Part shown: positions 25,180 to 48,659 of the stretch, one piece after another
How positions within the stretch are numbered: the stretch's first letter is position 1
Layout of the letters: every line of letters starts with the position of its first letter
DNA from: Microbacterium gubbeenense DSM 15944
GTDB lineage: Bacteria; Actinomycetota; Actinomycetes; Actinomycetales; Microbacteriaceae
Direction: 5' to 3'
Assembly: GCF_000422745.1 (NCBI RefSeq)
Contig: NZ_AUGQ01000001.1
Coordinates: forward strand, 186,001-250,000
Length of the DNA stretch: 64,000 bases
Notes under the pieces: generated by a model
The model's database searches: none
What the model saw: the letters and a program-made list of their open reading frames with translations, nothing else
Told to the model about the DNA's origin: nothing
Position numbers and translations under genes: made by a program

Positions 25180-26643
25180 ATGACACCCGCTCTCGTGCCC
25201 TGGCCGACGTCCGTCACGCTCACCGGCGGTGCGCTGCGCGCGGAGGGCGCGGGCACGCGATCCGCCGTCGCCGCGACGCTCGCGCGCGACGCTTCTCGCG
25301 ATACCAGCGCGGCCGAGTACGGCGCCGAGGGCTACGCGCTGCGCGTCGACGGCGACGGCGTCGTCATCGAATCCTCGACCGCGGCCGGCGCGTTCTACGC
25401 CGAGCAGACGCTCGAACAGCTCATCGACCGCGACGACGACGGCTTCTTCCTCCCCTGCGCGGACATCCGGGACGAGCCGCGCTTCGCGTACCGCGGCGTC
25501 ATGCTCGACGTCGCCCGGCACTTCCATTCCGCCTCGACCGTGATCTCGCTCATCGGCCGCGCCGCGGCGCTGAAGCTCAACGCGCTGCACCTGCACCTCA
25601 CCGACGACCAGGGGTGGCGCGTCGAGATCGCCTCGCACCCCGAGCTGACCGAGCGCGGTTCGTCGTCGAGCACGGGCGGGGATCCCGGCGGTTTCTACAC
25701 GCGAGACGACGTGCGCCTCATCGTCGAGGCCGCCGAACGACACCATATGATCGTCGTTCCCGAGATCGACGTGCCGGGCCACACGCATGCGCTCGGCCTC
25801 AGCCACCCGGATCTCGTCGCGGATCCCGTCATCGGCGAGGAGGTCGTAGCCGTCACCGCGGAGTACGGCGGTGAGCTGCCGCGCGCCGGTGCGCCGTACA
25901 CGGGGCTCGGCGTGGGGTTCTCGTCGTTGCGCGCGGACGCGGCCGGGACCGAGGCTCTGCTGCGCGACGTCTTCGGCGAGGTCGCCGCGATGACGCCCGG
26001 GCCGTACGTCCACCTCGGCGGCGACGAAGCGCTCGGCACCTCGACCGACGACTATCGCGCGCTGGTGGCGCTCGCATCGAGGATCGTCGCCGAGACCGGG
26101 AAGACCCCGGTCGCGTGGCACGAGGCGGGCGACGCCGATCTCCCGGACGGATCCGTCGTGCAGTTCTGGGGACTCCTCGACCCCGACCCGGAGCACGCCA
26201 GAAGGGTGATCCGCGCCGTGTCCCGCGGCGGACAGGTCGTGCTCTCCCCCGCCGACGCGATCTACCTCGACATGAAGTACGACGCTTCGTCGCCCATGGG
26301 ACTGACGTGGGCGAACGGCCCGACGAGCGTCGAGCGCTCGTACGCGTGGGATCCGGCCGACGTCATCGCGGGCATCACGGACGAGCACATCCTGGGCGTC
26401 GAGGCGGCGATGTGGACCGAGACGATCGCCGATGCGACCGCTGTCGAGGCCATGGCCTTCCCGCGGATCGCGTCTGCGGCGGAGGCGGCGTGGTCGCGGC
26501 CGCTCGGCTCGCCTCAGCGCGACTGGGCGTCATTCCGCGCGCGGGTCGGGCGACGCGGACCGGCGTGGCGCGAGGCCGGCATCCGATTCCACGCGTCGCC
26601 CGAGATCGACTGGGATCAGGACAGCTCGTACAACCAGTTGTGA
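25180..26643 (+). CDS. Cytosolic beta-N-acetylhexosaminidase, GH20
   Basis: 487-residue glycoside hydrolase family 20 enzyme removing terminal GlcNAc (or GalNAc) from oligosaccharides by substrate-assisted catalysis. The GH20b N-terminal domain (1-100) leads to the barrel: GVMLDVARHFHS, LNALHLHLTDDQGWRVEI, VVPEIDVPGHTHAL, and the catalytic pair Asp282-Glu283 in HLGGDEA. Trp-rich substrate-site segments (VAWHEAGD, VVQFWG, AAMWTETI) follow. No signal peptide, so it should act on imported disaccharides such as chitobiose. Divergent from the ROK repressor with two operators between. The 3' end overlaps ilvE by 28 nt, tail to tail. Confidence 0.93.
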   Translation: MTPALVPWPTSVTLTGGALRAEGAGTRSAVAATLARDASRDTSAAEYGAEGYALRVDGDGVVIESSTAAGAFYAEQTLEQLIDRDDDGFFLPCADIRDEPRFAYRGVMLDVARHFHSASTVISLIGRAAALKLNALHLHLTDDQGWRVEIASHPELTERGSSSSTGGDPGGFYTRDDVRLIVEAAERHHMIVVPEIDVPGHTHALGLSHPDLVADPVIGEEVVAVTAEYGGELPRAGAPYTGLGVGFSSLRADAAGTEALLRDVFGEVAAMTPGPYVHLGGDEALGTSTDDYRALVALASRIVAETGKTPVAWHEAGDADLPDGSVVQFWGLLDPDPEHARRVIRAVSRGGQVVLSPADAIYLDMKYDASSPMGLTWANGPTSVERSYAWDPADVIAGITDEHILGVEAAMWTETIADATAVEAMAFPRIASAAEAAWSRPLGSPQRDWASFRARVGRRGPAWREAGIRFHASPEIDWDQDSSYNQL

Positions 26644-27707
26644 CGGTCCTCGCGGCGCCCGTACTGGATGTCGGTGAGCTCCTCGCGCAGCGAGAGCGCC
26701 AGGGATCCGATGGGCTGCTCGTCGGTGAAGCCGGCCGCCTTGAGCGTGCCGATCGGCGTCACGACCGCGGCCGTGCCGCACGCGAACACCTCGACGATGT
26801 CGCCCGACGCGATGCCCTCGCGCCACTCGTTCAGCGAGATCGGGCGGCGCTCGATGGAGTGTCCGCGATCCTCGGCGAGCTGCAGCAGCGAGTTGCGGGT
26901 CACGCCGTCGAGGATCGTGTCCGAGGCGGGTGTGACGAGCGTGCCGTCCTTCTTCACGAACACGATGTTCATGCCGCCGAGCTCCTCGACGTTGCCGTGC
27001 GCGTCGAGGAAGACGACCTGGTCGCAGTCCTTGTCGTACGCCTCCGACTGCGGCAGCAGGCTCGAGGCGTAGTTGCCGCCCGTCTTCGCCGATCCGGTTC
27101 CGCCCTCCGACGCGCGGGCGTAGGTCTCGCTGAGCCAGATCGAGACCGGCTTCACGCCGCCCGTGAAGTAGGCGCCGGCGGGGCTGCCGATCACATAGAA
27201 CCCGTACTTCTTCGCCGGGCGCACGCCGAGGAAGGCTTCCTTGGCGAACATGAACGGGCGCAGGTACAGGGTCTGGTCCTCGCCCGAGGGCACCCAGGCC
27301 TCGTCGACCGCGATGAGTTCGCGGAGCGCCTGGATGAACACGCCCTCCGGGAGCTCGGGCATCGACAGGCGCTTGGCGCTGCGGTTGAAGCGGCGCGCGT
27401 TCTGCTCAGGGCGGAAGGTGTGCACCGATCCGTCGGCGTGCCGATACGCCTTCATGCCCTCGAACACCTCCTGCGCGTAGTGCAGGACGGCGGCGGCGGG
27501 GTCGAGCGAGATCGGGCCGTACGGCTGCACGCGCGGACGGTGCCAGCCGCCCTTCTCGGACCAGCACACGTCGACCATGTGGTCGGTGAAGACGCTGCCG
27601 AATCCCGGGTCGGCGAGCAGCTGCTCGCGCTCCGCCGGCGATTTCGCGGCGAGGTTCTTCGTGACCTGGAAGTCCAGCGTCGTGAGGTCGGGGTCGGTCG
27701 TGGTCAT
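26616..27707 (-). CDS. ilvE: Branched-chain amino acid aminotransferase
   Basis: 363-residue fold-type IV PLP enzyme interconverting Leu/Ile/Val and their 2-oxo acids with glutamate. PLP lysine is Lys208 in GSAKTGGNYA. Other family blocks: HYAQEVFEGMKAYR, FRPEQNARRFNRSA, LYLRPFMFAKEAFLG, VEELGGMNIVFV and VFACGTAAVVTPIG. Lies 43 bp downstream of leuB on the same strand, so leuB-ilvE form an operon. Its 3' end overlaps the convergent GH20 gene by 28 nt. Confidence 0.96.
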   Translation of the reverse strand: MTTTDPDLTTLDFQVTKNLAAKSPAEREQLLADPGFGSVFTDHMVDVCWSEKGGWHRPRVQPYGPISLDPAAAVLHYAQEVFEGMKAYRHADGSVHTFRPEQNARRFNRSAKRLSMPELPEGVFIQALRELIAVDEAWVPSGEDQTLYLRPFMFAKEAFLGVRPAKKYGFYVIGSPAGAYFTGGVKPVSIWLSETYARASEGGTGSAKTGGNYASSLLPQSEAYDKDCDQVVFLDAHGNVEELGGMNIVFVKKDGTLVTPASDTILDGVTRNSLLQLAEDRGHSIERRPISLNEWREGIASGDIVEVFACGTAAVVTPIGTLKAAGFTDEQPIGSLALSLREELTDIQYGRREDRHNWLYELS

Positions 27708-38672: not shown

Positions 38673-38728
38673 GAGGATTCCTCCACGGAGGCTGGTCAAT
38701 CCCAGGTCAGAGGCCGAAAACTTCTGGT

Positions 38729-38737
38729 TGTGGATAA
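38729..38737 (-). promoter_or_regulatory. Single consensus DnaA box upstream of the Tad locus
   Basis: TGTGGATAA on the plus strand is the exact complement of the DnaA box TTATCCACA, 39 bp before tadA. Only one copy was seen, so this is not a replication origin; it may be chance or a DnaA-responsive promoter element. Confidence 0.4.
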
Positions 38738-38776
38738 CTTTCGAGGCTGATCTCGGATTTCTGGCACGCTTGCCGG

Positions 38777-39961
38777 ATGAATCCGGAGCAGCACTCGATC
38801 GTCGAGCGCGTGCGCGAGCGCATCCGCGGCGATCAGTCGGTCCTCAGCGGTCGCGCCGTGCTGGCCGACGACGTCCGGCGCCTCGCGTTCGCGGAGATCC
38901 GGCGCCACAACGACTACGCGCTCGCACGCGGATCCCGCACCGTCGACGACCTCGACGCCGCCGCCCGCGAGGTCGTCGCCGCCGTGGCGGGATACGGCCC
39001 GCTGCAGCCGCTCCTCGACGACCCCGGCATCGAAGAGATCTGGCTGAACTCCGCCCGAGACGTGTTCATCGCTCGGGCCGGCGTCTCCGAGCGCGTGCCG
39101 ATGGAGCTCACCGACGATCTGGTGCGCGACATCGTCGAGCGCATGCTGCACACGTCGGGACGGCGCATCGACATCAGCCAGCCGTTCGTCGACGCCTCGC
39201 TGCCCGACGGCTCGCGATTGCACGTCGTGCACGGCGGAATCGCGCGGGGCAGCTGGGCCGTCAACATCCGAAAGTTCCTGCCGTCCGTCGGGTCCCTCGA
39301 CCGCCTCGTCGAGCTGGATTCGCTCCCCCGCCGCACGGCCGACCTGCTCGGGGACGCGATGCGCGAGGGACGCTCGGTGCTCGTGTCCGGGGCCACGCAC
39401 GCCGGAAAGACCACGCTGCTCGGCGCCCTCGCCTCCGAGTGCCGGCCCGAGCAGCGCATCGTGACGGTCGAGGAGACCTTCGAGCTGTCGATCGATGCAC
39501 CCGACCTCGTCGCGATGCAGGGGCGGCAGCCGAGCCTCGAGGGCACGGGCGAGATCACGCTGCGCCGCCTGGTGAAGGAGGCCCTCCGCATGCGGCCGGA
39601 CCGGCTCATCGTCGGAGAGGTGCGCGACGCGGAGGCGCTCGATCTCGTGCTCGCGCTCAACACGGGCCTCCCCGGCGCCGCCACGATCCACGCCAACTCC
39701 GCGGCGGACGCGCTCGTGAAGCTCTCGGCTCTGCCGCTGCTCGCGGGCCGCAACATCGACCGCGATTTCGTTCTCCCGGCCGTGGCCGGGTCGCTGGATC
39801 TCGTCGTGCACTGCGCGCGGTCTGCCGACGGCGCTCGCTACGTCGAGGAGATCATCGAGCCGACGGGCGAGATCACGGGCGGCGCACCGACCACGCGCAC
39901 GATCTACCGCGCGCATACCGACCGCGCCCCGTCACTGCGCCGATCGGAGCGCGCCGCATGA
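38777..39961 (+). CDS. tadA: Tad pilus secretion ATPase TadA/CpaF
   Basis: 394-residue type II/IV secretion ATPase that powers Flp pilus assembly at the inner membrane. N1D-type helical part (1-70), then YGPLQPLLDDPGIEEIWLNS, RIDISQPFVDASLPDGSRLHVV, Walker A GATHAGKT (205-212), the VEETFEL Asp/Glu box and Walker B RPDRLIVGEVRDAEALDLV, and the His box TIHANSAADAL. First gene of a seven-gene tad locus; its stop overlaps tadB (ATGA). The usual TadZ/CpaE-like gene found before tadA in actinobacteria is not present here. Confidence 0.94.
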   Translation: MNPEQHSIVERVRERIRGDQSVLSGRAVLADDVRRLAFAEIRRHNDYALARGSRTVDDLDAAAREVVAAVAGYGPLQPLLDDPGIEEIWLNSARDVFIARAGVSERVPMELTDDLVRDIVERMLHTSGRRIDISQPFVDASLPDGSRLHVVHGGIARGSWAVNIRKFLPSVGSLDRLVELDSLPRRTADLLGDAMREGRSVLVSGATHAGKTTLLGALASECRPEQRIVTVEETFELSIDAPDLVAMQGRQPSLEGTGEITLRRLVKEALRMRPDRLIVGEVRDAEALDLVLALNTGLPGAATIHANSAADALVKLSALPLLAGRNIDRDFVLPAVAGSLDLVVHCARSADGARYVEEIIEPTGEITGGAPTTRTIYRAHTDRAPSLRRSERAA

Positions 39962-40830
39962 TCGCCCTCCTCGGCGGAGGGCTCGGCATCGGCTTTCTGC
40001 TCGTCGCGTCCCCCTGGCTATGGCCCGCGGATCGCTCGCGCGCGCGGGCGCCGAAGGGTCCGAACGCGCTCGTCTCGCGAGCGACCGAGCTGCTCGAGGC
40101 GGCCGGATACGCGCAGGTCGCGCCGCGCGTGCTCGGCGCGGTCATGGCCGGGTGCGCGCTCACCGCGGCCGCCGTGGCGTGGCTCGTGACGACCGCGGGC
40201 GCGCTCGCCCTTCTCGCCGGGGTTGCGGCCGCGTGGGCGCCCCTCGTGTGGCTGCGCTCGCGCGCGGCCCGGCTCGTGCGCGTGCGCCGCGCGGTGTGGC
40301 CCGACGTGTGCGATCTGCTCGTCGGGTCGGTGCGCGCGGGGCTCTCCCTGCCCGACGCGGTCGCGGTGCTCGGAGATTCGGCGCCCAGCGCCGTGCGGCC
40401 CGCCTTCGCCCAGTTCGACCGCGATGTGCGCGCATCGGGTCACTTCGCGTCGAGCCTCGACCGGCTGAAGCAGCAGCTCTCCGATCCGATGGCCGACCGC
40501 ATCGTCGAGACGCTGCGCATGGCCCGCGAGGTCGGCGGCACCGAGCTCGTGCCCGTCCTCCGGGCGCTGTCGGTCTCGATCCGATCGGATGCCGCTCTCC
40601 GCGGCGAGGTCGAGTCGAAGCAGTCGTGGACGAAGGGGGCCGCCGTGCTCGGCGTTGTCGCCCCGTGGGCGGTGCTCGCCGTGATGTCGGTTCGACCCGA
40701 GGGCGCGCAGGCCTACGCGAGCGCGTCGGGGGTCACGCTCATCCTCGTCGGTGCGGTCATCTCGTTCGTCGCCTACCGAATCATGCTGCGCGTCGGGCGC
40801 CTCCCCGAGCCGCGGAGGTGGTTCGCGTGA
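39958..40830 (+). CDS. tadB: Tad pilus membrane platform protein TadB
   Basis: 290 residues, GspF-type inner-membrane platform. Hydrophobic N-terminal helices (MIALLGGGLGIGFLLVAS; GCALTAAAVAWLVTTAGALALLAGVAAAW), then the T2SSF domain with VRRAVWPDVCDLLVGSVRAGLSLPDAVAVLG and LRMAREVGGTELVPVLRALS, and C-terminal helices. Overlaps both neighbours by 4 nt (ATGA and GTGA). Confidence 0.9.
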   Translation: MIALLGGGLGIGFLLVASPWLWPADRSRARAPKGPNALVSRATELLEAAGYAQVAPRVLGAVMAGCALTAAAVAWLVTTAGALALLAGVAAAWAPLVWLRSRAARLVRVRRAVWPDVCDLLVGSVRAGLSLPDAVAVLGDSAPSAVRPAFAQFDRDVRASGHFASSLDRLKQQLSDPMADRIVETLRMAREVGGTELVPVLRALSVSIRSDAALRGEVESKQSWTKGAAVLGVVAPWAVLAVMSVRPEGAQAYASASGVTLILVGAVISFVAYRIMLRVGRLPEPRRWFA

Positions 40831-41768
40831 CCGGGGCCACCGATGTGGCGATCGCCCTGCTCCTCGGCGGCGGCATCGGCGTGGGCGCGTGGTGCGTGGC
40901 GGCGGCGCTTCCGTCATGGCGATCCCCCGCGCTCGTGCGCCGCGTCGGGCCGTACGTGCGCGACGTCACGGATCCCGCCGGCACGACGCTCGCCGACGCC
41001 ATCACCGATCCGACCGCGGCGCTCGCGGGCGGCGTCGGATCGCTGTGGCGGCGCGGGCAGGCGAAGTTCGCCCGGATCCTCGGCGGCGCGGAATCGCTCG
41101 AACTGCGGCTCGCGCAGGCGGGCCGGACCCCGGACGTCGCGGCGTTCCGCGGCTCGCAGCTGGTCTGGGGCCTCGCGGGCCTCGGCATCGGCGCCGCGAT
41201 CGTCGTCGCGATGATGACCGCCGGGCGCATGTCCGTCGCCGCGATCGCCGTCCCGTTCATCGCCGCGGCCGCCGGAGTCGTCGCGCGCGACCTGCTGCTC
41301 TCGGCGGCGGCCCGCTCGCGCGTCGCGCGCATCGAGGAGGAGCTGCCGACCGTCCTGGAGTTCCTCGCCCTGTGCCTGTCGGCTGGCGAGGGCGTGCTCG
41401 GCAGCGTCCGGCGCGTCGCCGACGTCGGAACCGGCGAGCTGACCGCCGAGCTGCGCGCCGCGACCGTCGAGGTCGACACCGGCGCCACGCTCACCGACGC
41501 GCTCACCGCGATGACGAGGCGCATCAAGGCGCCCGTGCTCACGCGCGCGATCGATCACGCCGTGGCCGCGATTGAGCGGGGCTCGCCGCTGGCCGAGACG
41601 CTCGAAGCACAGGCATCGGACGCGCGCGAGGACGCCAAGCGCGCGCTCATCGAGACGGCCGGGCGCAAGGAGATTCTGATGATGATTCCGCTCGTCTTCG
41701 GCCTCCTCCCCCTCTCCGTTCTGTTCGCGATCTTCCCCGGGGTCGCGATTCTCCAACAGGGGTTCTGA
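40827..41768 (+). CDS. tadC: Tad pilus membrane platform protein TadC
   Basis: 313 residues, second T2SSF-type platform subunit. Central helices (LVWGLAGLGIGAAIVVAMM, VAAIAVPFIAAAAGVVA), cytosolic domain with RIEEELPTVLEFLALCLSAGEGVLGSVRRVA and MTRRIKAPVLTRAIDHAVAAIERGSPLAETL, and the C-terminal FGLLPLSVLFAIFPGVAIL. GTG start at 40827 overlaps the tadB stop; a GTG slightly upstream is possible. Confidence 0.9.
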   Translation: MTGATDVAIALLLGGGIGVGAWCVAAALPSWRSPALVRRVGPYVRDVTDPAGTTLADAITDPTAALAGGVGSLWRRGQAKFARILGGAESLELRLAQAGRTPDVAAFRGSQLVWGLAGLGIGAAIVVAMMTAGRMSVAAIAVPFIAAAAGVVARDLLLSAAARSRVARIEEELPTVLEFLALCLSAGEGVLGSVRRVADVGTGELTAELRAATVEVDTGATLTDALTAMTRRIKAPVLTRAIDHAVAAIERGSPLAETLEAQASDAREDAKRALIETAGRKEILMMIPLVFGLLPLSVLFAIFPGVAILQQGF

Positions 41769-41791
41769 TCCGCAGATGAAAGGCGACACGC

Positions 41792-42004
41792 ATGTACGAC
41801 CGACTGACAGAACTGACCATCAGAGGCTCGATCCGAGCCCGCGACGCGTGGGGCGAGATCCGCGACGAGGAGCGTGGCGACATCCCTGGCTGGGTACTCA
41901 TAACTCTGATGACCGTGACGATCGGCGTCGCGATCTGGGCGATCGCCGGTCCCGCGCTCGAGGGGCTGTTCGGCAAGGCGCTCGGGCTCATCAACGGCAT
42001 GTGA
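41792..42004 (+). CDS. Flp-type pilin
   Basis: 70-residue small pilin. After a cytosolic leader of about 29 residues (ending EERGD) comes a single hydrophobic helix IPGWVLITLMTVTIGVAIWAIAGPAL and a short tail. The Gly-Asp position before the helix is the probable processing site. It would form the fibre of the Tad pilus. Followed by tadE with a 1-nt stop/start overlap (TGATG). No prepilin peptidase gene is in this locus. Confidence 0.88.
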   Translation: MYDRLTELTIRGSIRARDAWGEIRDEERGDIPGWVLITLMTVTIGVAIWAIAGPALEGLFGKALGLINGM

Positions 42005-42396
42005 TGGCCGAGCCCGACAGCGCGGGCGAACGCGGGTCGGCGCCCGCCGAGTTCATCCTCGTCGGGTTGCTGCTCACGGCGCTCACCCTCGCGGTGCTGC
42101 AGTTCGGGCTCGCGATGTACGCCCGCAACATCGTGCAGGACGCGGCCGTCGAGGCCGCCTTCCATGCGGCGCTCGCCGACACGAGCGACGCGGAGGCCGA
42201 GCACCGCGCTCACGAGGTGGTGACGGCCGCGCTCGGTCACGACACGATCGAGTGGGCGCTCGTGACGCGGATGAGCATGAACGGCGTCGATATGGTCAAG
42301 GTCGACCTCGGTGCGACCTATCCGCTCGTCGGGTTCTTCGGCATCTCGGCCGGATCGGTGGTGACCGCGCATGCGCCCGTGGAATCCGCGGGATGA
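42004..42396 (+). CDS. TadE-like minor pseudopilin
   Basis: 130 residues. The start ERGSAPAEFILVGLLLTALTLAVLQFGLAMYARN is the TadE hallmark: a Glu inside a hydrophobic helix after a Gly-Ser. The rest is an extracellular alpha/beta domain beginning IVQDAAVEAAFHAAL. ATG at 42004 overlaps the pilin stop; a GTG at 42001 in the same frame is possible. Minor subunit of the Tad pilus. Confidence 0.88.
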   Translation: MAEPDSAGERGSAPAEFILVGLLLTALTLAVLQFGLAMYARNIVQDAAVEAAFHAALADTSDAEAEHRAHEVVTAALGHDTIEWALVTRMSMNGVDMVKVDLGATYPLVGFFGISAGSVVTAHAPVESAG

Positions 42397-42802
42397 CGAG
42401 CGCGGCAGCGCGTCGCTCGAGTTCATCGTCGCCGGGCTGATCCTGCTCGTGCCGATCGTCTACCTGGTGCTCGCGCTCGGGGCGGTGCAGAACGCCGCGC
42501 TCGGTGCCGAGGCCACCGCGCGCTTCGTCGCGCGCACGATCGCCTCCGGCGACGAGGCCGCAGCGACCGTGGTGCGCGACAGCGTCGCGGCCGGGTACGG
42601 GCTCGATCCCGCATCCCTGGCGATCCGCGTCGAGTGCGTTCCCGCGGGCGCGCACTGCCCGGCGGCGGGCGCGACGGTTCTCGTCACGGTCTCCGACACC
42701 GTCTCGCTCCCCTTCATGCCCGACCTCTTCGGGCTCGCGGACGCCACGGCGATCCCGGTCGACGCGACCGGCACGTACCGCGTGGAGAGGCTGACCGAAT
42801 GA
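42371..42802 (+). CDS. TadE/TadF-like minor pseudopilin
   Basis: 143 residues with DDERGSASLEFIVAGLILLVPIVYLVLALGAVQNAALGAEATARFVART, the same Ser/Leu-Glu-Phe pseudopilin start as TadE. Extracellular part has two Cys (VECVPAGAHCP) that may form a disulfide. It overlaps the preceding gene by 26 nt, if the ATG at 42371 is used, and the next by 4 nt. Confidence 0.85.
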   Translation: MRPWNPRDDERGSASLEFIVAGLILLVPIVYLVLALGAVQNAALGAEATARFVARTIASGDEAAATVVRDSVAAGYGLDPASLAIRVECVPAGAHCPAAGATVLVTVSDTVSLPFMPDLFGLADATAIPVDATGTYRVERLTE

Positions 42803-43227
42803 TCGGCGCGGACGAGGTCGGGGACGACGAGCGCGGCAGCGTGCTGCCCCTCATCCTCGTGTACATGCTGCTCGGAATCGCGCTGACGCTGGTGTGCGCG
42901 AACGCGGTCTCGCTCTTCACCGCGCAGAAGCGCACGGATGCCCTGGCGGACGCCGCGGCGCTCGCGGCCTCCGATGGGTTCGAGATCGTCGCGGACGCGG
43001 GCGGGGCGCGGATCCGGCTCGACCCCGCTCTCGCGCGCCGTCAAGCCGAGGAGGTGCTCGCGGTCTCCCCCGTCGATGCGCACCTCGCCGAGATCACGAC
43101 CCCCGATCCGTCGACCGCCCGCGCCGTCGTCGCCACGACGTGGCATCCGATCATGCTCTCGCTCTTCGTGCCCGACGGCGTCGTGCTCGACGCGGTGGGC
43201 ACGAGCCGCGCCTCGCTCGCCGGCTGA
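42799..43227 (+). CDS. TadG/Rv3654-like pilus-associated protein
   Basis: 142 residues. ERGSVLPLILVYMLLGIALTLVCANAVSLFTAQKRTDALADAAALAASDGF is typical of TadG-type and actinobacterial helicase/secretion-neighbourhood pseudopilin proteins, with one N-terminal transmembrane helix and an extracellular domain. Last gene of the tad locus; 4-nt overlap (ATGA) with the gene before it. It converges on rdgB after 35 bp. Confidence 0.82.
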   Translation: MIGADEVGDDERGSVLPLILVYMLLGIALTLVCANAVSLFTAQKRTDALADAAALAASDGFEIVADAGGARIRLDPALARRQAEEVLAVSPVDAHLAEITTPDPSTARAVVATTWHPIMLSLFVPDGVVLDAVGTSRASLAG

Positions 43228-43262: not shown

Positions 43263-43850
43263 TCAGAGCGCCTCGAGCAGCGGCACGATCGCCTCGAGCG
43301 CGCGGGAGCGGTGCGAGACGGCGTTCTTCTCCGACGCCGTCAGCTCGGCCGCCGAACGGTCGTCGCCGTCGGGAACGAAGATCGGGTCGTATCCGAACCC
43401 GCCCTCGCCGCGCGGCTCGCGGGCCACGCGCCCCGGCCAGATCCCCTCGACCGTGTGCTCCTCGCCCTCGGGTGTCACGAGCGCGATCACCGAGGTGTAA
43501 TGCGCTGTGCGGTCCTCGTCGCGCGCGAGGTCGGAGATCTGGTCGAGCAGCAGCGCGAGGTTCGCCGAGTCGTCTTTGTCGTGCCCCGCCCAGTACGCCG
43601 AGAAGACGCCCGGCGATCCGCCGAGCACGTCGACGCAGATTCCGGAGTCGTCCGCGAGTGCGACGAGGCCCGTGTGCGCGGCCGCCGCGCGGGCCTTGAT
43701 GAGCGCGTTCGCCTGGAACGACGTGCCGTCCTCGACCGGCTCGGGGCCGTCGTAGGAGACGACCTCGATGTCGGGGCGCACGCGCGAGACGATCGACTGC
43801 AGCTCGGCGACCTTGTGCGCGTTGTGCGTCGCCAGTACGACTCGGATCAT
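43263..43850 (-). CDS. rdgB: Non-canonical purine NTP pyrophosphatase RdgB/HAM1
   Basis: 195-residue house-cleaning enzyme that hydrolyses dITP, ITP and XTP to monophosphates. [16 protein letters not shown], the [26 protein letters not shown] active-site block and [13 protein letters not shown] are diagnostic. ATG at 43850 overlaps the rph stop by 4 nt, the usual rph-rdgB arrangement in many bacteria. Confidence 0.96.
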
Positions 43851-44575
43851 CGGCCGAGCGCCGCCTGCTGCAGCTGGGTGAGGTCGGCGCAGCCCTTCGC
43901 GCCCAGCTCGAGCAGCTGATCCAACTCGGCCTTGTCGAACGGCGCGGCCTCCGCGGTCCCCTGCACCTCGACGAACTTGCCCGAACCGGTCATGACGATG
44001 TTCATGTCGGTGTCGGCGCGCGAGTCCTCCTCGTACGGCAGGTCGAGCATGGGGGTTTTGTCGATGATGCCCACCGAGATCGCGGCGATCGAGTCACTGA
44101 GCGGCGTGGCCTTCTTCGCGACGAAGCCCTTCTCCCGGCCCCACTCGATTGCGTCGACGAGGGCGACGTATGCGCCCGTGATCGACGCCGTGCGGGTGCC
44201 GCCATCGGCCTGCAGCACGTCGCAGTCGATGACGATCGTGTTCTCGCCGAGCGACTTCGTGTCGACGACGGCGCGCAGGGCACGGCCGATCAGGCGCGAG
44301 ATCTCGTGCGTGCGTCCGCCGATCTTGCCCTTCACGCTCTCGCGCGTCGAGCGATCGTTCGTGGCGCGGGGCAGCATCGCATACTCCGCCGTGACCCAGC
44401 CCTTGCCCTTGCCGGTGAGCCAGCGGGGCACGCCGTTCGTGAAGCTCGCCGTGCACAACACCTTCGTGCCGCCGAAGCTGATCAGGGCGGATCCCTCCGC
44501 CTGGCTGCTCCAGCCTCGTTCGATTGTGACGGGGCGGAGCTGGTCGAGTGCGCGACCGTCGGCGCGAGTTGTCAT
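43847..44575 (-). CDS. rph: Ribonuclease PH
   Basis: 242-residue phosphorolytic 3'-5' exoribonuclease that trims tRNA 3' ends. [52 protein letters not shown] and [25 protein letters not shown] mark RNase PH. AGAGGA lies upstream of the ATG at 44575. First gene of rph-rdgB; it follows murD2 after 65 bp. Confidence 0.96.
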
Positions 44576-44640: not shown

Positions 44641-45948
44641 CTACTGTGCGTGTTCGGCCGCGAAGCCGCGGAACGCGGCCGCGCGCGCCTCGTAGTCGGC
44701 GAACTCATCGAAACTCGGCGCGCCCGGCGAGAGCAGGATCGCGTCGCCGGACGCCGTCAGCGAGCGCGCGATGGCAACGGCGTCGGCGAAGCCGCTCGCG
44801 ACATGGATCCGCGCGGCGCGGCCCTGCGCCTCGCGGGCGAGGCGCGCCCCGGCGGGTCCCGTGCACACGAGCTCGACGTCGTCGCGCCCCGCGAGGGCGT
44901 CGACGATCGGCGAGAAGTCGAGGTCGCGCTCCGAACCGCCCGCGATCAGCGCGATGCGGGGCGCGACAACGCTCGTGAGCGCGGCGGCGACCGCCTGCGG
45001 CGCCGTGGCGAGCCCATCGTCGATCCAGGTGCGGCCGTCGCCCGACGGCACGACCTCGAGCCGGTGCGCGAGCGGGACGAACGTCGCGACCGCCTCGAGC
45101 GCGCGCGAGCGGTCCGACGCGCCGAGATAGGCATCGACGGCGGCCAGCGCGAGCGCGGCGTTCGTGAGATTGTGCGTGCCCACGAGATTCATGTCCGCAA
45201 GGGCGAGCGATCCGGCGCCGTCCCACGAGATCGCGCGCTCGGTCACCGCGATGCCGAGGCTCGCGGGCGAGAGCATCCGCGCGTCGCCCGCGACCGCGCG
45301 CACGCGGCGGCCGAGGTCGTCCGACGGATCCGGCACGACGACGGTGTCGGGGCCGAACGCCGCGAGGCGCAGCTTGTCGGCGACGTAGTTCTCGAACCCG
45401 CCGTGCCACGGCAGGTGCTCCGGGTACAGGGAGGTGATCACGGCCACGCGCGGCGACGCCGTGAGCTCTGCGGCCTGGTAGCTCGAGACTTCGGTCACGG
45501 CGCAGTCGATGTCGTCGCCGACGTGCGCGCCGACCGGGATGCCGATGTTTCCGGCCAGCTCGGCGGTGCGGCCGAGCGCGGTGAGGATGTGCTGCACGAG
45601 CGCCGAAGTCGTGCTCTTCCCCTTCGTGCCCGTGACGGCGATGACCCGGTCGCGGTTCTCCGTCAGCCAGAGGTCCATGAGCGACGTGATCGGAACGCCC
45701 GCGTCTCGCAGCGCGATGTACTCGCCGGACGTGTGCGGGATCCCCGGCGACTTCACGATGGCGCCGGCGCTCTGGAGCAGCGCCCACGCCGCGTCGCCCG
45801 TGACGACGCCGTCCGGCGCGGGTCCGGTCCCGGTGACCGCGATCACGGATCCGATTCCGCGGCCCGCGAGCTCGCGGTGCGCGGCCATGCCCTCGCGCCC
45901 GGCGCCCCAGATGACGACATCGCGTGCCGCCAGCTCGTCAAATCTCAC
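44641..45948 (-). CDS. murD2: MurD2-type ligase (UDP-MurNAc-L-Ala--L-glutamate ligase)
   Basis: 435-residue Mur ligase. Rossmann-like N-terminal domain ([13 protein letters not shown]), ATPase domain with the P-loop VTGTKGKST (105-113), middle [11 protein letters not shown], and a C-terminal domain with PLAHRLEVV and [17 protein letters not shown]. It resembles MurD but sits in an 11-nt overlap with murL, the partner in the alternative pathway described in Xanthomonas, where MurD2 adds L-Glu (not D-Glu) to UDP-MurNAc-L-Ala and MurL then epimerises it. GTG start at 45948. Context, more than motif, separates it from canonical MurD; a canonical murD may exist in the dcw cluster elsewhere. Confidence 0.82.
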
Positions 45949-47272
45949 GCGCGACCGCCTCGAGCTCGGGCGAGAGGAAGTGCTCGGATCCGCGCCACGC
46001 GAACACGCTGTCGCGCTCGGCATCCGTCGACGACACGGCCCGGACCTCGGGCCGGGCGAGGAACGGATGACCGGCCCAGTCGTCGCGGTCCCGCAGCATG
46101 TCGAGCGCGACGCGGCACTCGTCGGGCTCTCCGACGCACTCAAACGGCTTGAACAGGCCGTCCACGCCGAGCAGCTCGAGGAAGCCCTCGGTCTGCTGCT
46201 CGTCCGCGAACAGGTCGCGTCCGGCGAAGATCTGAAGCAGCGCGTCGCGGCTGAGGAAGGGCGCGAGGATGAGGAAGACGAACCGGCACTTCGGGCACTC
46301 GCCGCACCAGGTGGCGTCGGCGGCCGCGCTCATGCGGAACGCGCGGTTGCAGCTCGTGAAGACCGAGTGGTACGCCGGGTGCTGTGCGAACCGGCGCGCG
46401 ATGCGGATCTCGGTGATCGGGCGCAGGAGCGAGACGTAGTCGGGCGCGCCGTGAGGGAGGCTCTGGCGCAGCAGCGCCTCGAACTCGCTGCTCTTCGACC
46501 ACTGGTGGTTGATGTCGCGGCCCGCCCATCGCTGGTTGCCGTAGGACGCGCTCGCCTCGTTGCTGAACACGACGGTGCCGTACCCGTTCGCCGCGGCGGT
46601 GATCAGCGCGATGAGGGAGTTGATGGCCGTCACCGGCACGTGGCCGTTGGGCGCGCCCTCGCCGTTGAGCCGCAGCAGCAGCGGGGCGATCCGGCGCTTC
46701 GCGCGCTCGAGGCCGATGCCCGCGACCTCGGCCGTGGCCTCGATGGGCCCGCGCGGATTGATCGCGAACAGCCCGACCTCGATGCCTGAGGCCTTCAGCG
46801 CCTCGATCGACACGACCGAGTCCTTGCCGCCGCCGACCGCCACGAGCGAACGCGCTCCGGTTCGCTCCCGGCCTGCCGGCACCGGATCCGCGAGCGACGG
46901 CGCGAGGACGACGGGATCGAGGACCTCGGGCAGGTCGTTGACGATCGCGAACTCGCCGAGACCGCCCGTGATCAGCTCCGTGACGAACCGGCGTTCGGCG
47001 GACGTCAGGCCGCCCGGAACGGCGAAGGTCGTCGGCGCGAAGGCCTTGAAGTAGCTCAGGGACGCCGCGAGGGCGAGCAGTCGCGCGAGGCCCTCGGTCA
47101 GGGGCGAATCCGGGATCTCGCCGGGGATCTCGACCTCCTCGACGAACTCGTAGATCGGCCCGTCGTCGCCCGCGGCCGCGTACCGCAGCCGGATCAGGTT
47201 TCCCCGTGTCTCCGGCTGCCTCACCTCGAACCGAGTGACGGCCGAACGTGCCTCGGAGAATGCGATTCCCAT
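45938..47272 (-). CDS. murL: MurL, UDP-MurNAc-L-Ala-L-Glu epimerase
   Basis: 444 residues. An N-terminal domain of about 140 residues leads to an ATP-pyrophosphatase-like loop VAVGGGKDSVVSIEAL (GGGKDS 147-152), FSNEASASYGNQRWAG (about 237-251) and a Cys cluster, WCGECPKCRF (Cys323/326/329), as in the MurL family. In Xanthomonas, MurL inverts the terminal L-Glu of UDP-MurNAc-L-Ala-L-Glu in an ATP-dependent reaction, giving the D-Glu needed for the peptide stem without glutamate racemase. Coupled to murD2 (11-nt overlap). Start ATG 47272 has TAGATT 8 nt upstream; longer frames run into the divergent pncB promoter. TilS/ExsB-like proteins are the alternative reading but fit less well. Confidence 0.85.
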   Translation of the reverse strand: MGIAFSEARSAVTRFEVRQPETRGNLIRLRYAAAGDDGPIYEFVEEVEIPGEIPDSPLTEGLARLLALAASLSYFKAFAPTTFAVPGGLTSAERRFVTELITGGLGEFAIVNDLPEVLDPVVLAPSLADPVPAGRERTGARSLVAVGGGKDSVVSIEALKASGIEVGLFAINPRGPIEATAEVAGIGLERAKRRIAPLLLRLNGEGAPNGHVPVTAINSLIALITAAANGYGTVVFSNEASASYGNQRWAGRDINHQWSKSSEFEALLRQSLPHGAPDYVSLLRPITEIRIARRFAQHPAYHSVFTSCNRAFRMSAAADATWCGECPKCRFVFLILAPFLSRDALLQIFAGRDLFADEQQTEGFLELLGVDGLFKPFECVGEPDECRVALDMLRDRDDWAGHPFLARPEVRAVSSTDAERDSVFAWRGSEHFLSPELEAVAREI

Positions 47273-47280
47273 AGCGGTCA

Positions 47281-47353
47281 AATCTACACGGCCGTGCCCT
47301 CGAAAGCCCCGGACGCACGCCTGCCGATGACCGCCGCCGCACGCCAGTAGAGT
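47281..47353. promoter_or_regulatory. Divergent leaderless promoters of murL and pncB
   Basis: Minus strand TAGATT (47281-47286) lies 8 nt before the murL ATG; plus strand TAGAGT (47348-47353) lies exactly 7 nt before the pncB ATG. Neither gene has a Shine-Dalgarno. The 88-bp region has no other visible element. Confidence 0.5.
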
Positions 47354-47360
47354 GGCGATC

Positions 47361-48659
47361 ATGCTTCAGTCGACCGCGCTCTTGACGGATCGTTACGAAC
47401 TCACGATGCTCGACGCGTCGCTGCGCGACGGCACGGCGCATCGTCGATGCGTGTTCGAGCTGTTCGGCAGGCGGCTATCGGGCGGCCGTCGATTCGGCGT
47501 CGCGGCGGGCCAGGGGCGCCTGATGTCGCTGCTGCGAGACTTCCGCTTCTCCGACGACGACCTGCGATTCCTCCGCGACCAGCGGGTCGTGGGCCCCGAG
47601 ACGCTGACGTACCTCGAGAACTACCGCTTCTCCGGATCCATCGCGGGCTACCGCGAAGGCGAGCTGTATTTCCCGGAGTCGCCGCTGCTGACGGTCGAGG
47701 CCACGTTCGCCGACGCCGTGATCCTCGAAACGCTCGCGCTGAGCGTGCTGAACTTCGACTCGGCGGTCGCGACCGCCGCGGCGCGCATGTCGATCGCCGC
47801 GGGCGATCGCCCGATCGCCGAGATGGGATCCCGTCGGGCCCACGAGTACGGCGCCGTCGCCGCCGCGCGCGCGGCCTATATTGCCGGGTTCACGTCGACG
47901 AGCAATCTCGAGGCGGGGCGCACCTGGGGCGTGCCCACCATGGGCACGGCGGCGCACGCCTGGACCCTCCTGCACGACACGGAGGAGGACGCGTTCCGCG
48001 CGCAGATCGACGCCCACGGAACCGGCACTGCCCTGCTGGTCGACACCTACGACATCTCGGAGGGCGTGCGCACGGCGGTCGAGATCGCGGGGCCGCAGCT
48101 GGGCGGCGTTCGCATCGACTCCGGCGATCTGCCGCTGGTCGCGGCGGACGTTCGCGATCACCTCGACCGGCTCGGAGCGACCGGCACGCGCATCACCGTC
48201 ACGAGTGATCTCGACGAGTACGCGATCGCGGCGCTCGCGGCGTCGCCGGTCGACTCGTACGGCGTCGGCACCTCGCTCGTGACGGGATCCGGATACCCGA
48301 CGGCCGGCCTCGTCTACAAGCTCGTGGCCCGCCAGGACGCGTCGGGCGCATGGATCCCGGTGGCGAAGAAGGCGCAGGACAAGGGATCGACGGGTGGGCG
48401 CAAGCAGGCCTTCCGCCGCGTCGAGCGCGGCACCGCGACCGAGGAGATCGTGCGTCTCACGATGGATGCGACCGTGCCGGAGGGCTCGCGCCCCCTCGTC
48501 GTGCCGTTCGTCGACGGAGGCGAGTTCGATTCGAGCCACGAGGGCCCGGCCGGTGTCGTCGCCGCGCGGGCGCACCACGCGCGCGCACGCCAGGAGCTGC
48601 CCGTGCGCGCGCTCGCGCTCAGCAAGTCGGATCCGGCGATCCCGACCGTCTCCGCCTGA
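47361..48659 (+). CDS. pncB: Nicotinate phosphoribosyltransferase
   Basis: Makes nicotinate mononucleotide from nicotinate and PRPP in NAD salvage. 432 residues. LLTDRYELTMLDA at the N-terminus, VFELFGRRLSGGRRFGVAAG, RRAHEYGAVAAARAAYIAGFTSTSN, the PRPP/phosphate-site GVRIDSGDLPLVA, and GVGTSLVTG are PncB blocks; the active-site His is in MGTAAHAW. ATG at 47361 is preferred over the in-frame GTG at 47352 because TAGAGT sits 7 nt upstream (leaderless). Divergent from murL, convergent on the DUF3039 gene (17-bp gap). Confidence 0.95.
   Translation: MLQSTALLTDRYELTMLDASLRDGTAHRRCVFELFGRRLSGGRRFGVAAGQGRLMSLLRDFRFSDDDLRFLRDQRVVGPETLTYLENYRFSGSIAGYREGELYFPESPLLTVEATFADAVILETLALSVLNFDSAVATAAARMSIAAGDRPIAEMGSRRAHEYGAVAAARAAYIAGFTSTSNLEAGRTWGVPTMGTAAHAWTLLHDTEEDAFRAQIDAHGTGTALLVDTYDISEGVRTAVEIAGPQLGGVRIDSGDLPLVAADVRDHLDRLGATGTRITVTSDLDEYAIAALAASPVDSYGVGTSLVTGSGYPTAGLVYKLVARQDASGAWIPVAKKAQDKGSTGGRKQAFRRVERGTATEEIVRLTMDATVPEGSRPLVVPFVDGGEFDSSHEGPAGVVAARAHHARARQELPVRALALSKSDPAIPTVSA

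What the first reader, a model, noticed from the sequence alone, without database searches (positions are those of the whole stretch)
44641..47272. MurD2-MurL pair: alternative route for D-glutamate in peptidoglycan
The GGGKDS loop, NEASASYG region and WCGECPKC cluster identify MurL, and an 11-nt overlap couples it to a MurD-like ligase. In Xanthomonas, MurD2 adds L-Glu and MurL inverts it, so no racemase or free D-Glu is needed. Finding the pair in a Microbacteriaceae-like genome, outside a dcw cluster, raises the question of whether it replaces MurI/MurD or adds to them.
Basis: partly seen in the sequence, partly recalled or inferred. Interest (0 to 1): 0.8.

Follow-up and report, generated by a model that had tools for sequence, protein, structure and literature searches.

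The report
MurL–MurD2 replaces MurI; MurD left truncated
In a small branch of Microbacterium, two genes have taken over the spot and the job of the usual enzyme that makes mirror-image glutamate for the cell wall, and the old ligase gene survives only as a shortened, apparently inactive protein that evolution still preserves.

Summary
MurL (45938-47272, -) and MurD2 (44641-45948, -) overlap by 11 nt. MurD2 carries the published L-Glu residues (Glu for E. coli Asp182, Arg for Lys348).

"Replace or add?" is answered: replace. The pair sits where relatives keep murI (pncB | X | rph-rdgB). Of 366 Microbacterium genomes, the six without any MurI match are the six with MurL. No D-amino-acid transaminase passes its cut-off.

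The surprising part is the second murD. The dcw slot between mraY and ftsW holds a MurD cut at the domain 2/3 boundary, without the glutamate-binding C-terminal domain. The slot is truncated in 22 of 25 MurL+ Microbacteriaceae and in 6 of 18 further MurL+ genomes (Nocardioides, Pimelobacter, Arachnia). The 27 intact truncated ORFs end 3-30 residues past that boundary; most catalytic residues are gone, yet dN/dS is 0.11-0.47.

Best reading: a complete MurD2-MurL route, acquired once in this clade; MurI lost in place; MurD reduced to a conserved non-catalytic protein, perhaps a divisome scaffold (inferred). MurL's model has the PP-loop fold, matching its ATP-to-AMP chemistry. The pathway is known; the in-place replacement and truncated MurD did not appear in searches.

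The parts
45938..47272 (-). [quoted passage not shown] PP-loop GGGKDS at residues 147-152, Cys cluster 323-329
44641..45948 (-). [quoted passage not shown] Glu/Leu/Arg at the positions of E. coli Asp182/Lys319/Lys348
45938..45948 (-). 11-nt overlap of murL stop and murD2 start
43847..44575 (-). rph (RNase PH), downstream flank of the murI slot
43263..43850 (-). rdgB/HAM1 NTP pyrophosphatase, downstream flank of the murI slot
47352..48659 (+). pncB (nicotinate phosphoribosyltransferase), divergent upstream flank of the murI slot

Best explanation
The pair is a complete alternative route for D-Glu at position 2 of the stem peptide. [quoted passage not shown] In this genome the route has replaced MurI at the murI locus, most simply once in the ancestor of five sequenced Microbacterium species. 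[quoted passage not shown] Shown here by computation: identity, gene order, no detectable MurI/Dat, residue changes, truncation, purifying selection. Inferred: the enzyme activities (from the X. oryzae, Micromonospora and Salinispora enzymes), the adenylation step, and a structural role of truncated MurD (about 0.6 that it is functional rather than a slow fossil).
For: MurI (PF01177) has no match in the 99.96% complete own genome; the controls ring in 10 of 14. Of 366 genus genomes, TIGR00067 has no match in six, and these are the six with MurL. Among 65 Microbacteriaceae, MurI is over cut-off in 0 of 26 MurL+ and 38 of 39 MurL-. Dat TIGR01121 is over cut-off in 0 of 26 MurL+ genomes; the weak own hit is ilvE. 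murL-murD2 lies between pncB and rph in 21 of 26 MurL+ loci; in 10 of 10 fetched MurL- loci murI stands there before rph-rdgB, with pncB mapped in 8 of 10, and in G150 too. Specificity residues: Glu at the D182 position in 23 of 26 and Arg at K348 in 26 of 26, Leu at K319 in 26 of 26; the review reports that E197D/R358K switch X. oryzae MurD2 to D-Glu and that K319T lets E. coli MurD take L-Glu (PMC8788868, text parts 1-2 of 3 read). MurL model pLDDT 94; PP-loop fold, QatC Z 18.5 over 311 residues, QueC Z 13.0. The dcw slot holds a 343-aa MurD without domain 3. The five Microbacterium species branch alike in the MurL tree and the dcw tree.
Against: MurL scores 324 bits against a cut-off of 700 for the only curated MurL model, which is named for Xanthomonadales. 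No activity was measured. The Dat cut-off is strict: only 1 of 14 control genomes passes it, and 26 of 26 MurL+ genomes have a weak match of at most 41 bits. Foldseek's own TM-score for MurL against QatC is only 0.42. Four MurL+ genomes keep a full-length MurD with the inspected catalytic residues intact (G524, G660, G667, G668), and Gordonia G674 has a MurI-like match over cut-off, so replacement is not complete everywhere. G013, without MurL, also shows no MurI match (a 0.9 Mb genome). Against a function of truncated MurD: murD is gone altogether in 7 of 18 further dcw regions, G177 carries a frameshift, dN/dS tends higher than in canonical MurD. The window genome's own truncated MurD still has the P-loop Lys and Glu157, so loss of ATP binding is not shown there.
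Confidence: 0.92

Rival explanations
1. The truncated dcw MurD is only a fossil: once MurD2-MurL arrived, canonical MurD decayed from the C-terminus and will be lost; the ORF stays open by chance, by high G+C, or because translation through it is needed for ftsW.
For: A graded series exists: intact (G524, G660, G667, G668), full length with damaged residues (G038, G166, G658), truncated (27 ORFs), absent (7 of 18). dN/dS is up to 0.47. G177 is frameshifted.
Against: dN/dS 0.11-0.47 in 10 pairs, where a drifting frame should give about 1; the 27 ORFs end 3-30 residues past the same boundary; 37 sites besides the start Met stay at least 90% conserved in both truncated and full groups, while P-loop and catalytic sites vary. 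Coupling alone would not conserve residues.
Confidence: 0.37
2. MurD2-MurL is an addition, and a hidden MurI/MurD or Dat still supplies D-Glu.
For: Profile searches can miss divergent enzymes; the genome is a draft of 74 contigs.
Against: 99.96% complete; PF01177 and TIGR00067 silent in it while TIGR00067 matches in 360 of 366 genus genomes; no full-length second MurD; Dat below cut-off.
Confidence: 0.04
3. MurL is not an epimerase here but another PP-loop carboxylate-activating enzyme, like QueC or the QatC defence protein.
For: Nearest solved folds are QatC, Cap9 and QueC.
Against: By sequence only the MurL model matches, no PADLOC model matches; it is coupled to MurD2 and complementary to MurI in the genus; MurD2/MurL orthologues from Micromonospora sp. 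and Salinispora tropica were confirmed in vitro (PMC8788868).
Confidence: 0.03
4. Truncated MurD is a partner subunit of MurD2 or MurL (for example holding UDP-MurNAc-L-Ala or channelling the L-Glu intermediate) rather than a divisome scaffold.
For: Truncation was seen only in MurL+ genomes: in 39 of 39 MurL- genomes the best MurD match spans the whole profile. N-terminal-domain glycines stay conserved.
Against: Micromonospora and Mycolicibacterium carry MurL with no murD in the dcw slot; no direct evidence of contact.
Confidence: 0.15

Closest known systems
MurD2-MurL of Xanthomonas oryzae (XOO_1320/XOO_1319), Micromonospora, Salinispora
   Same: Ligase and epimerase encoded by adjacent genes; E197/R358-type specificity residues; genome without MurI or Dat orthologue (X. 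oryzae: as stated in PMC8788868)
   Different: The pair lies in the old murI slot and a truncated canonical MurD is kept in the dcw cluster; X. oryzae gene order, overlap, dcw murD and its K319 residue were not compared here
MurI (glutamate racemase) at pncB-murI-rph-rdgB
   Same: Same locus and same pathway need (D-Glu at position 2)
   Different: Unrelated proteins; peptide-level epimerisation with ATP instead of free Glu racemisation
Canonical actinobacterial MurD (TIGR01087)
   Same: Truncated dcw protein aligns over the N-terminal and central domains (86.5 bits, profile 1-301 of 441)
   Different: No C-terminal domain; among 27 truncated ORFs P-loop Lys is kept in 6, Glu157 in 9, His183 in 1, Lys198 in 2
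QatC / Cap9 / QueC (PP-loop)
   Same: Predicted fold of MurL: QatC Z 18.5, 3.9 A, 311 residues; Cap9 Z 13.1; QueC Z 13.0; GGGKDS invariant in 52 MurL rows
   Different: 14-21% identity in those alignments; no QueC or PADLOC sequence hit; different pathway

Membership tests
MurL (glycopeptidyl-glutamate epimerase, broad family) | Full-length sequence relationship to characterised MurL | tested here: met
   NF041275 E 1e-96 over residues 14-411
NF041275 MurL_Xanthmoales equivalog | Score over the curated cut-off (700 bits) | tested here: not met
   324.2 bits; so it is not filed in this Xanthomonadales-specific equivalog
MurL (broad family) | Gene beside murD2 and no MurI/Dat | tested here: met
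MurL (broad family) | ATP-dependent one-way L-to-D epimerisation forming AMP | not testable with these tools
   Published for X. oryzae (PMC8788868)
MurD2 | MurD-family ligase over cut-off | tested here: met
   TIGR01087 279.5 bits, cut-off 211.95
MurD2 | Glu and Arg at E. coli Asp182/Lys348 positions | tested here: met
MurD2 | Uses L-Glu, not D-Glu | not testable with these tools
   needs enzyme assay
Canonical MurD (for the dcw protein) | Three domains with P-loop, His183, Lys198 and glutamate-binding C-domain | tested here: not met
   343 aa, C-domain absent; in G000 the His183 stretch is deleted and Lys198 is Leu, while P-loop Lys and Glu157 remain
PP-loop ATP pyrophosphatase fold (MurL) | SGGxDS-like loop (motif recalled) and fold | tested here: met
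   GGGKDS invariant in 52 sequences; Z 18.5/13.0 from a predicted model; Foldseek TM 0.42 for QatC
QueC | Sequence match to QueC models | tested here: not met
   NCBIfam and Pfam scans list no QueC for MurL at E 0.001

The most novel reading that the evidence does not exclude
MurD has a second, non-enzymatic job that outlives its catalysis. When MurD2-MurL makes its ligase activity redundant, several actinobacterial lineages independently trim MurD at the domain 2/3 boundary and keep the N-terminal and central domains as a dedicated scaffold or regulator between MraY and FtsW.
Probability: 0.5. Interest if true: 0.82.

Novelty: new variant of a known kind. Interest (0 to 1): 0.66.

Why it matters
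It gives a clean natural experiment: within one genus, D-Glu supply switched from MurI to MurD2-MurL at the same locus, with complementary distribution in 366 genomes. The enzyme made redundant did not simply vanish; in several lineages it was cut to the same two-domain form and kept under purifying selection. That makes a long-standing question testable: do Mur ligases have structural roles in the wall/division machinery apart from catalysis? Mur synthetases of M. tuberculosis were reported to contact FtsZ, FtsW, FtsQ, Wag31 and a SepF orthologue, though not each other (PMC3605390, passages). By inference, MurI inhibitors should not touch these bacteria. The PP-loop assignment gives MurL, said to lack known conserved domains (PMC5808125 passages; PMC8788868), a concrete mechanism to test.

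Tried and rejected
A second full-length MurD in the own genome: not found. Dat: the only own hit (32 bits) is a branched-chain aminotransferase, window 26616-27707. Two separate truncations within Microbacterium: the single-gene MurD tree split the five, but five other dcw proteins make them one clade at 90/89, not starred, so I count one. The parsimony figure of 9 changes is therefore probably too high; starred branches force at least 5 between truncated and full MurL+ rows, and that bootstrap had not settled. Shuffled labels did as well in 204 of 500, so the truncated label is not clustered on that tree, as expected of repeated events. MurL has no useful PDB sequence match (one at E 1) and no PADLOC match. 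Rows dropped: G676 (frameshifts across several dcw genes) and G177 (frameshift) from the MurD tree; G029's dcw was never fetched; one saturated dN/dS pair (G094/G294) has no ratio. Two of 26 MurL+ genomes had weak TIGR00067 matches (24-26 bits, cut-off 146.65). G524 (81% complete) has MurL on a 7.5-kb contig and may be contaminated. Paper searches (open-access PMC only; listings and abstract starts, and for 78 only 10 of 542) showed no report of truncated MurD with MurL or of MurL in Microbacterium; one search found no paper with QatC, QueC and adenylation together; one search listed none that, by title and term counts, links MurL to the PP-loop.

Full report
OBSERVATION. The two genes are as described. 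MurL is 45938-47272(-), 444 aa, with GGGKDS, NEASASYG and WCGECPKC; MurD2 is 44641-45948(-), 435 aa, GTG start; they overlap by 11 nt. MurD2 scores 279.5 bits on TIGR01087 (cut-off 211.95). MurL's only NCBIfam hit at E 0.001 is NF041275 MurL_Xanthmoales, E 1e-96, 324 bits, under its cut-off of 700. Pfam has no MurL hit at E 0.001.

THE LOCUS IS THE MURI LOCUS. Downstream are rph and rdgB, upstream the divergent pncB. Ten loci from MurL- Microbacteriaceae (L128-L137) all show murI before rph-rdgB; pncB was also mapped beside it in eight of the ten (not in L128 and L135). The same holds in G150, the sister of the window clade. Of 26 MurL+ loci, 21 have murL-murD2 between pncB and rph, 2 have rph only (G225; G267, where the contig starts), 1 has another order (Canibacter, G183: pair between rdgB and rph) and 2 have no flanking gene mapped (G166, G524). 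The fit is tight in Microbacterium; in several others there is extra sequence, up to about 1.8 kb, between pncB and murL (G027, G148, G233) or between murD2 and rph (G132, G219, G255).

REPLACEMENT, NOT ADDITION. The own genome (99.96% complete, 0.21% contaminated) has no PF01177 match. Over 366 genus genomes, MurL matches in 6 and TIGR00067 in 360 (358 over cut-off); the six without are G000, G343, G405, G450, G524 and G626, the same six that have MurL. In 65 Microbacteriaceae (26 MurL+, 39 MurL-) MurI is over cut-off in 0 of 26 and 38 of 39; two MurL+ genomes have 24-26-bit matches and the one MurL- miss is a 0.9 Mb genome. Dat (TIGR01121) is over cut-off in 0 of 26 MurL+ genomes; all 26 have weak matches of at most 41 bits against a cut-off of 277, and only 1 of 14 controls passes it; the own weak hit is ilvE.

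MURD2. Numbering was fixed on E. coli MurD. Asp182 is Glu in 23 of 26 MurD2 (Asp in G166, G225, G524) and Lys348 is Arg in 26 of 26; Lys319 is Leu in 26 of 26. The review by Ogasawara and Dairi reports that E197D/R358K turn X. oryzae MurD2 into a D-Glu ligase and that K319T lets E. coli MurD accept L-Glu (PMC8788868, text parts 1 and 2 of 3 read). So the window enzyme has the residues expected of an L-Glu ligase.

MURL. An alignment of 52 sequences keeps GGGKDS, NGH, NHQ, SCN and the WC..C.KC cluster invariant. AlphaFold2 gave pLDDT 94.2, pTM 0.94. Best solved folds by VIA-align: QatC of the QatABCD defence system (Z 18.5, 3.9 A, 311 residues), Cap9 (Z 13.1), QueC (Z 13.0), then YcfA, ThiI, NcsA/TtuA, LarE, TilS and NAD synthetases, mostly PP-loop enzymes (family knowledge). 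Foldseek puts QatC first at E 1.2e-4 with a TM-score of only 0.42 and QueC at E 1.7e-3. The published reaction uses one ATP and forms AMP, and the authors proposed adenylation of the alpha-carboxylate, while noting no known conserved domain (PMC8788868; PMC5808125 passages). The fold supports that proposal; it does not prove it.

THE OLD MURD. The dcw cluster (G000:C1:378-392 kb, L015) has murF-mraY-X-ftsW-murG-murC-ftsQ-ftsZ, X being a 343-aa ORF (L015:7239-8267, outside the window) that matches TIGR01087 only over 1-301 of 441, 86.5 bits. I fetched this slot from 25 of the 26 MurL+ family genomes (G029 missing): 22 are truncated (one, G177, frameshifted), 3 full length (G038, G166, G524). 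I fetched it from 18 further MurL+ genomes reached through named records (20 searched): 6 are truncated (Pimelobacter simplex; Nocardioides gilvus, phosphati, jejuensis; two Arachnia), 4 full (Leucobacter, also Microbacteriaceae; N. deserti; Saccharothrix; Parafrankia), 7 have no MurD match between mraY and ftsW (Micromonospora, Catenuloplanes, Gordonia, four Mycobacteriaceae), and 1 (G676) is too frameshifted to call. In 39 of 39 MurL- genomes the best MurD match spans the whole profile.

The 27 intact truncated ORFs end 3-30 residues past the domain 2/3 boundary, 24 of them within 15. In E. coli the N-terminal plus central domains are residues 1-299 and the C-terminal domain, which binds the amino acid, 300-437 (PMC4816537 passages). 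Kept catalytic residues in the 27: P-loop Lys115 6, Glu157 9, His183 1, Lys198 2; in 36 full rows 36, 36, 35, 35 (one MAFFT alignment). The window genome's own copy is among those that keep the P-loop Lys and Glu157, but its His183 stretch is deleted and Lys198 is Leu. Besides the start Met, 37 sites are at least 90% conserved in both groups, including N-terminal glycines and most of a DRAF motif. Nei-Gojobori dN/dS is 0.11-0.47 in 10 truncated pairs (an eleventh is saturated, pN/pS 0.30) and 0.10-0.29 in 7 full pairs over the same domains; pairs share some rows. Of the 7 full-length MurD rows in MurL+ genomes, Leucobacter G658 and G166 have damaged residues in the C-domain only, G038 in both central and C-domain, and four look intact, so the C-domain may go first.

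HISTORY. Microbacteriaceae MurL falls into three separate parts of a quick MurL tree (SH-aLRT only): the Microbacterium clade near Leucobacter, Arachnia and Nocardioides; the Pontimonas/Galbitalea/Salinibacterium group near Micromonosporaceae; and G166/G225/G524 near Mycobacteriaceae. Starred branches force at least 4 changes of that label. Members of the first two groups occupy the same murI slot, so that slot has held at least two MurL lineages. In Microbacterium, five dcw proteins place the five MurL+ species together (90/89) with MurI+ G150 as sister, with the same branching as in the MurL tree: most simply one acquisition, then vertical descent. The MurD N+central tree needs 9 state changes and starred branches force 5 between truncated and full MurL+ rows, but it splits Microbacterium, which the dcw tree does not.

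INTERPRETATION. Certain enough: MurD2-MurL is the only detectable D-Glu route here, placed in MurI's slot. Likely: truncated MurD is expressed and constrained. A scaffold role is inferred; M. tuberculosis Mur synthetases were reported to contact FtsZ, FtsW, FtsQ, Wag31 and the SepF orthologue, not each other, and MurI only the enzyme that uses its product (PMC3605390 passages). A fossil in slow decay remains the main rival.

Noticed in passing
G000:C1:384238-385266 (L015:7239-8267, -), outside the window: 343-aa MurD lacking the C-terminal domain between mraY and ftsW; the most interesting part of this case.
   Followed up: yes
L173 (Saccharibacteria MAG): murD2 precedes murL, the reverse of the order seen in the other mapped loci.
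   Followed up: no
G669, G670, G671, G673 (Mycolicibacterium/Mycobacterium sp.): MurL with MurD2, no MurI match, and no MurD match between mraY and ftsW: some mycobacteria seem to run this pathway alone.
   Followed up: partly
G674 (Gordonia alkaliphila): MurL-MurD2 (with pncB and rph within a few kb) plus a MurI-like match over cut-off (160 bits) but no dcw murD; the racemase may serve another role.
   Followed up: no
G166, G225, G524 MurD2: Asp instead of Glu at the position that sets L-Glu preference in X. oryzae MurD2.
   Followed up: no
window 38728-43227 (+): Run of ORFs that look like Tad pilus genes (TadB/TadC/TadE-like by eye, recalled, not tested) just beyond rdgB.
   Followed up: no
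L151 (Leucobacter), L167 (Canibacter): MurL-MurD2 lies near rph-rdgB but in a different arrangement, as if the region were a repeated landing site.
   Followed up: partly
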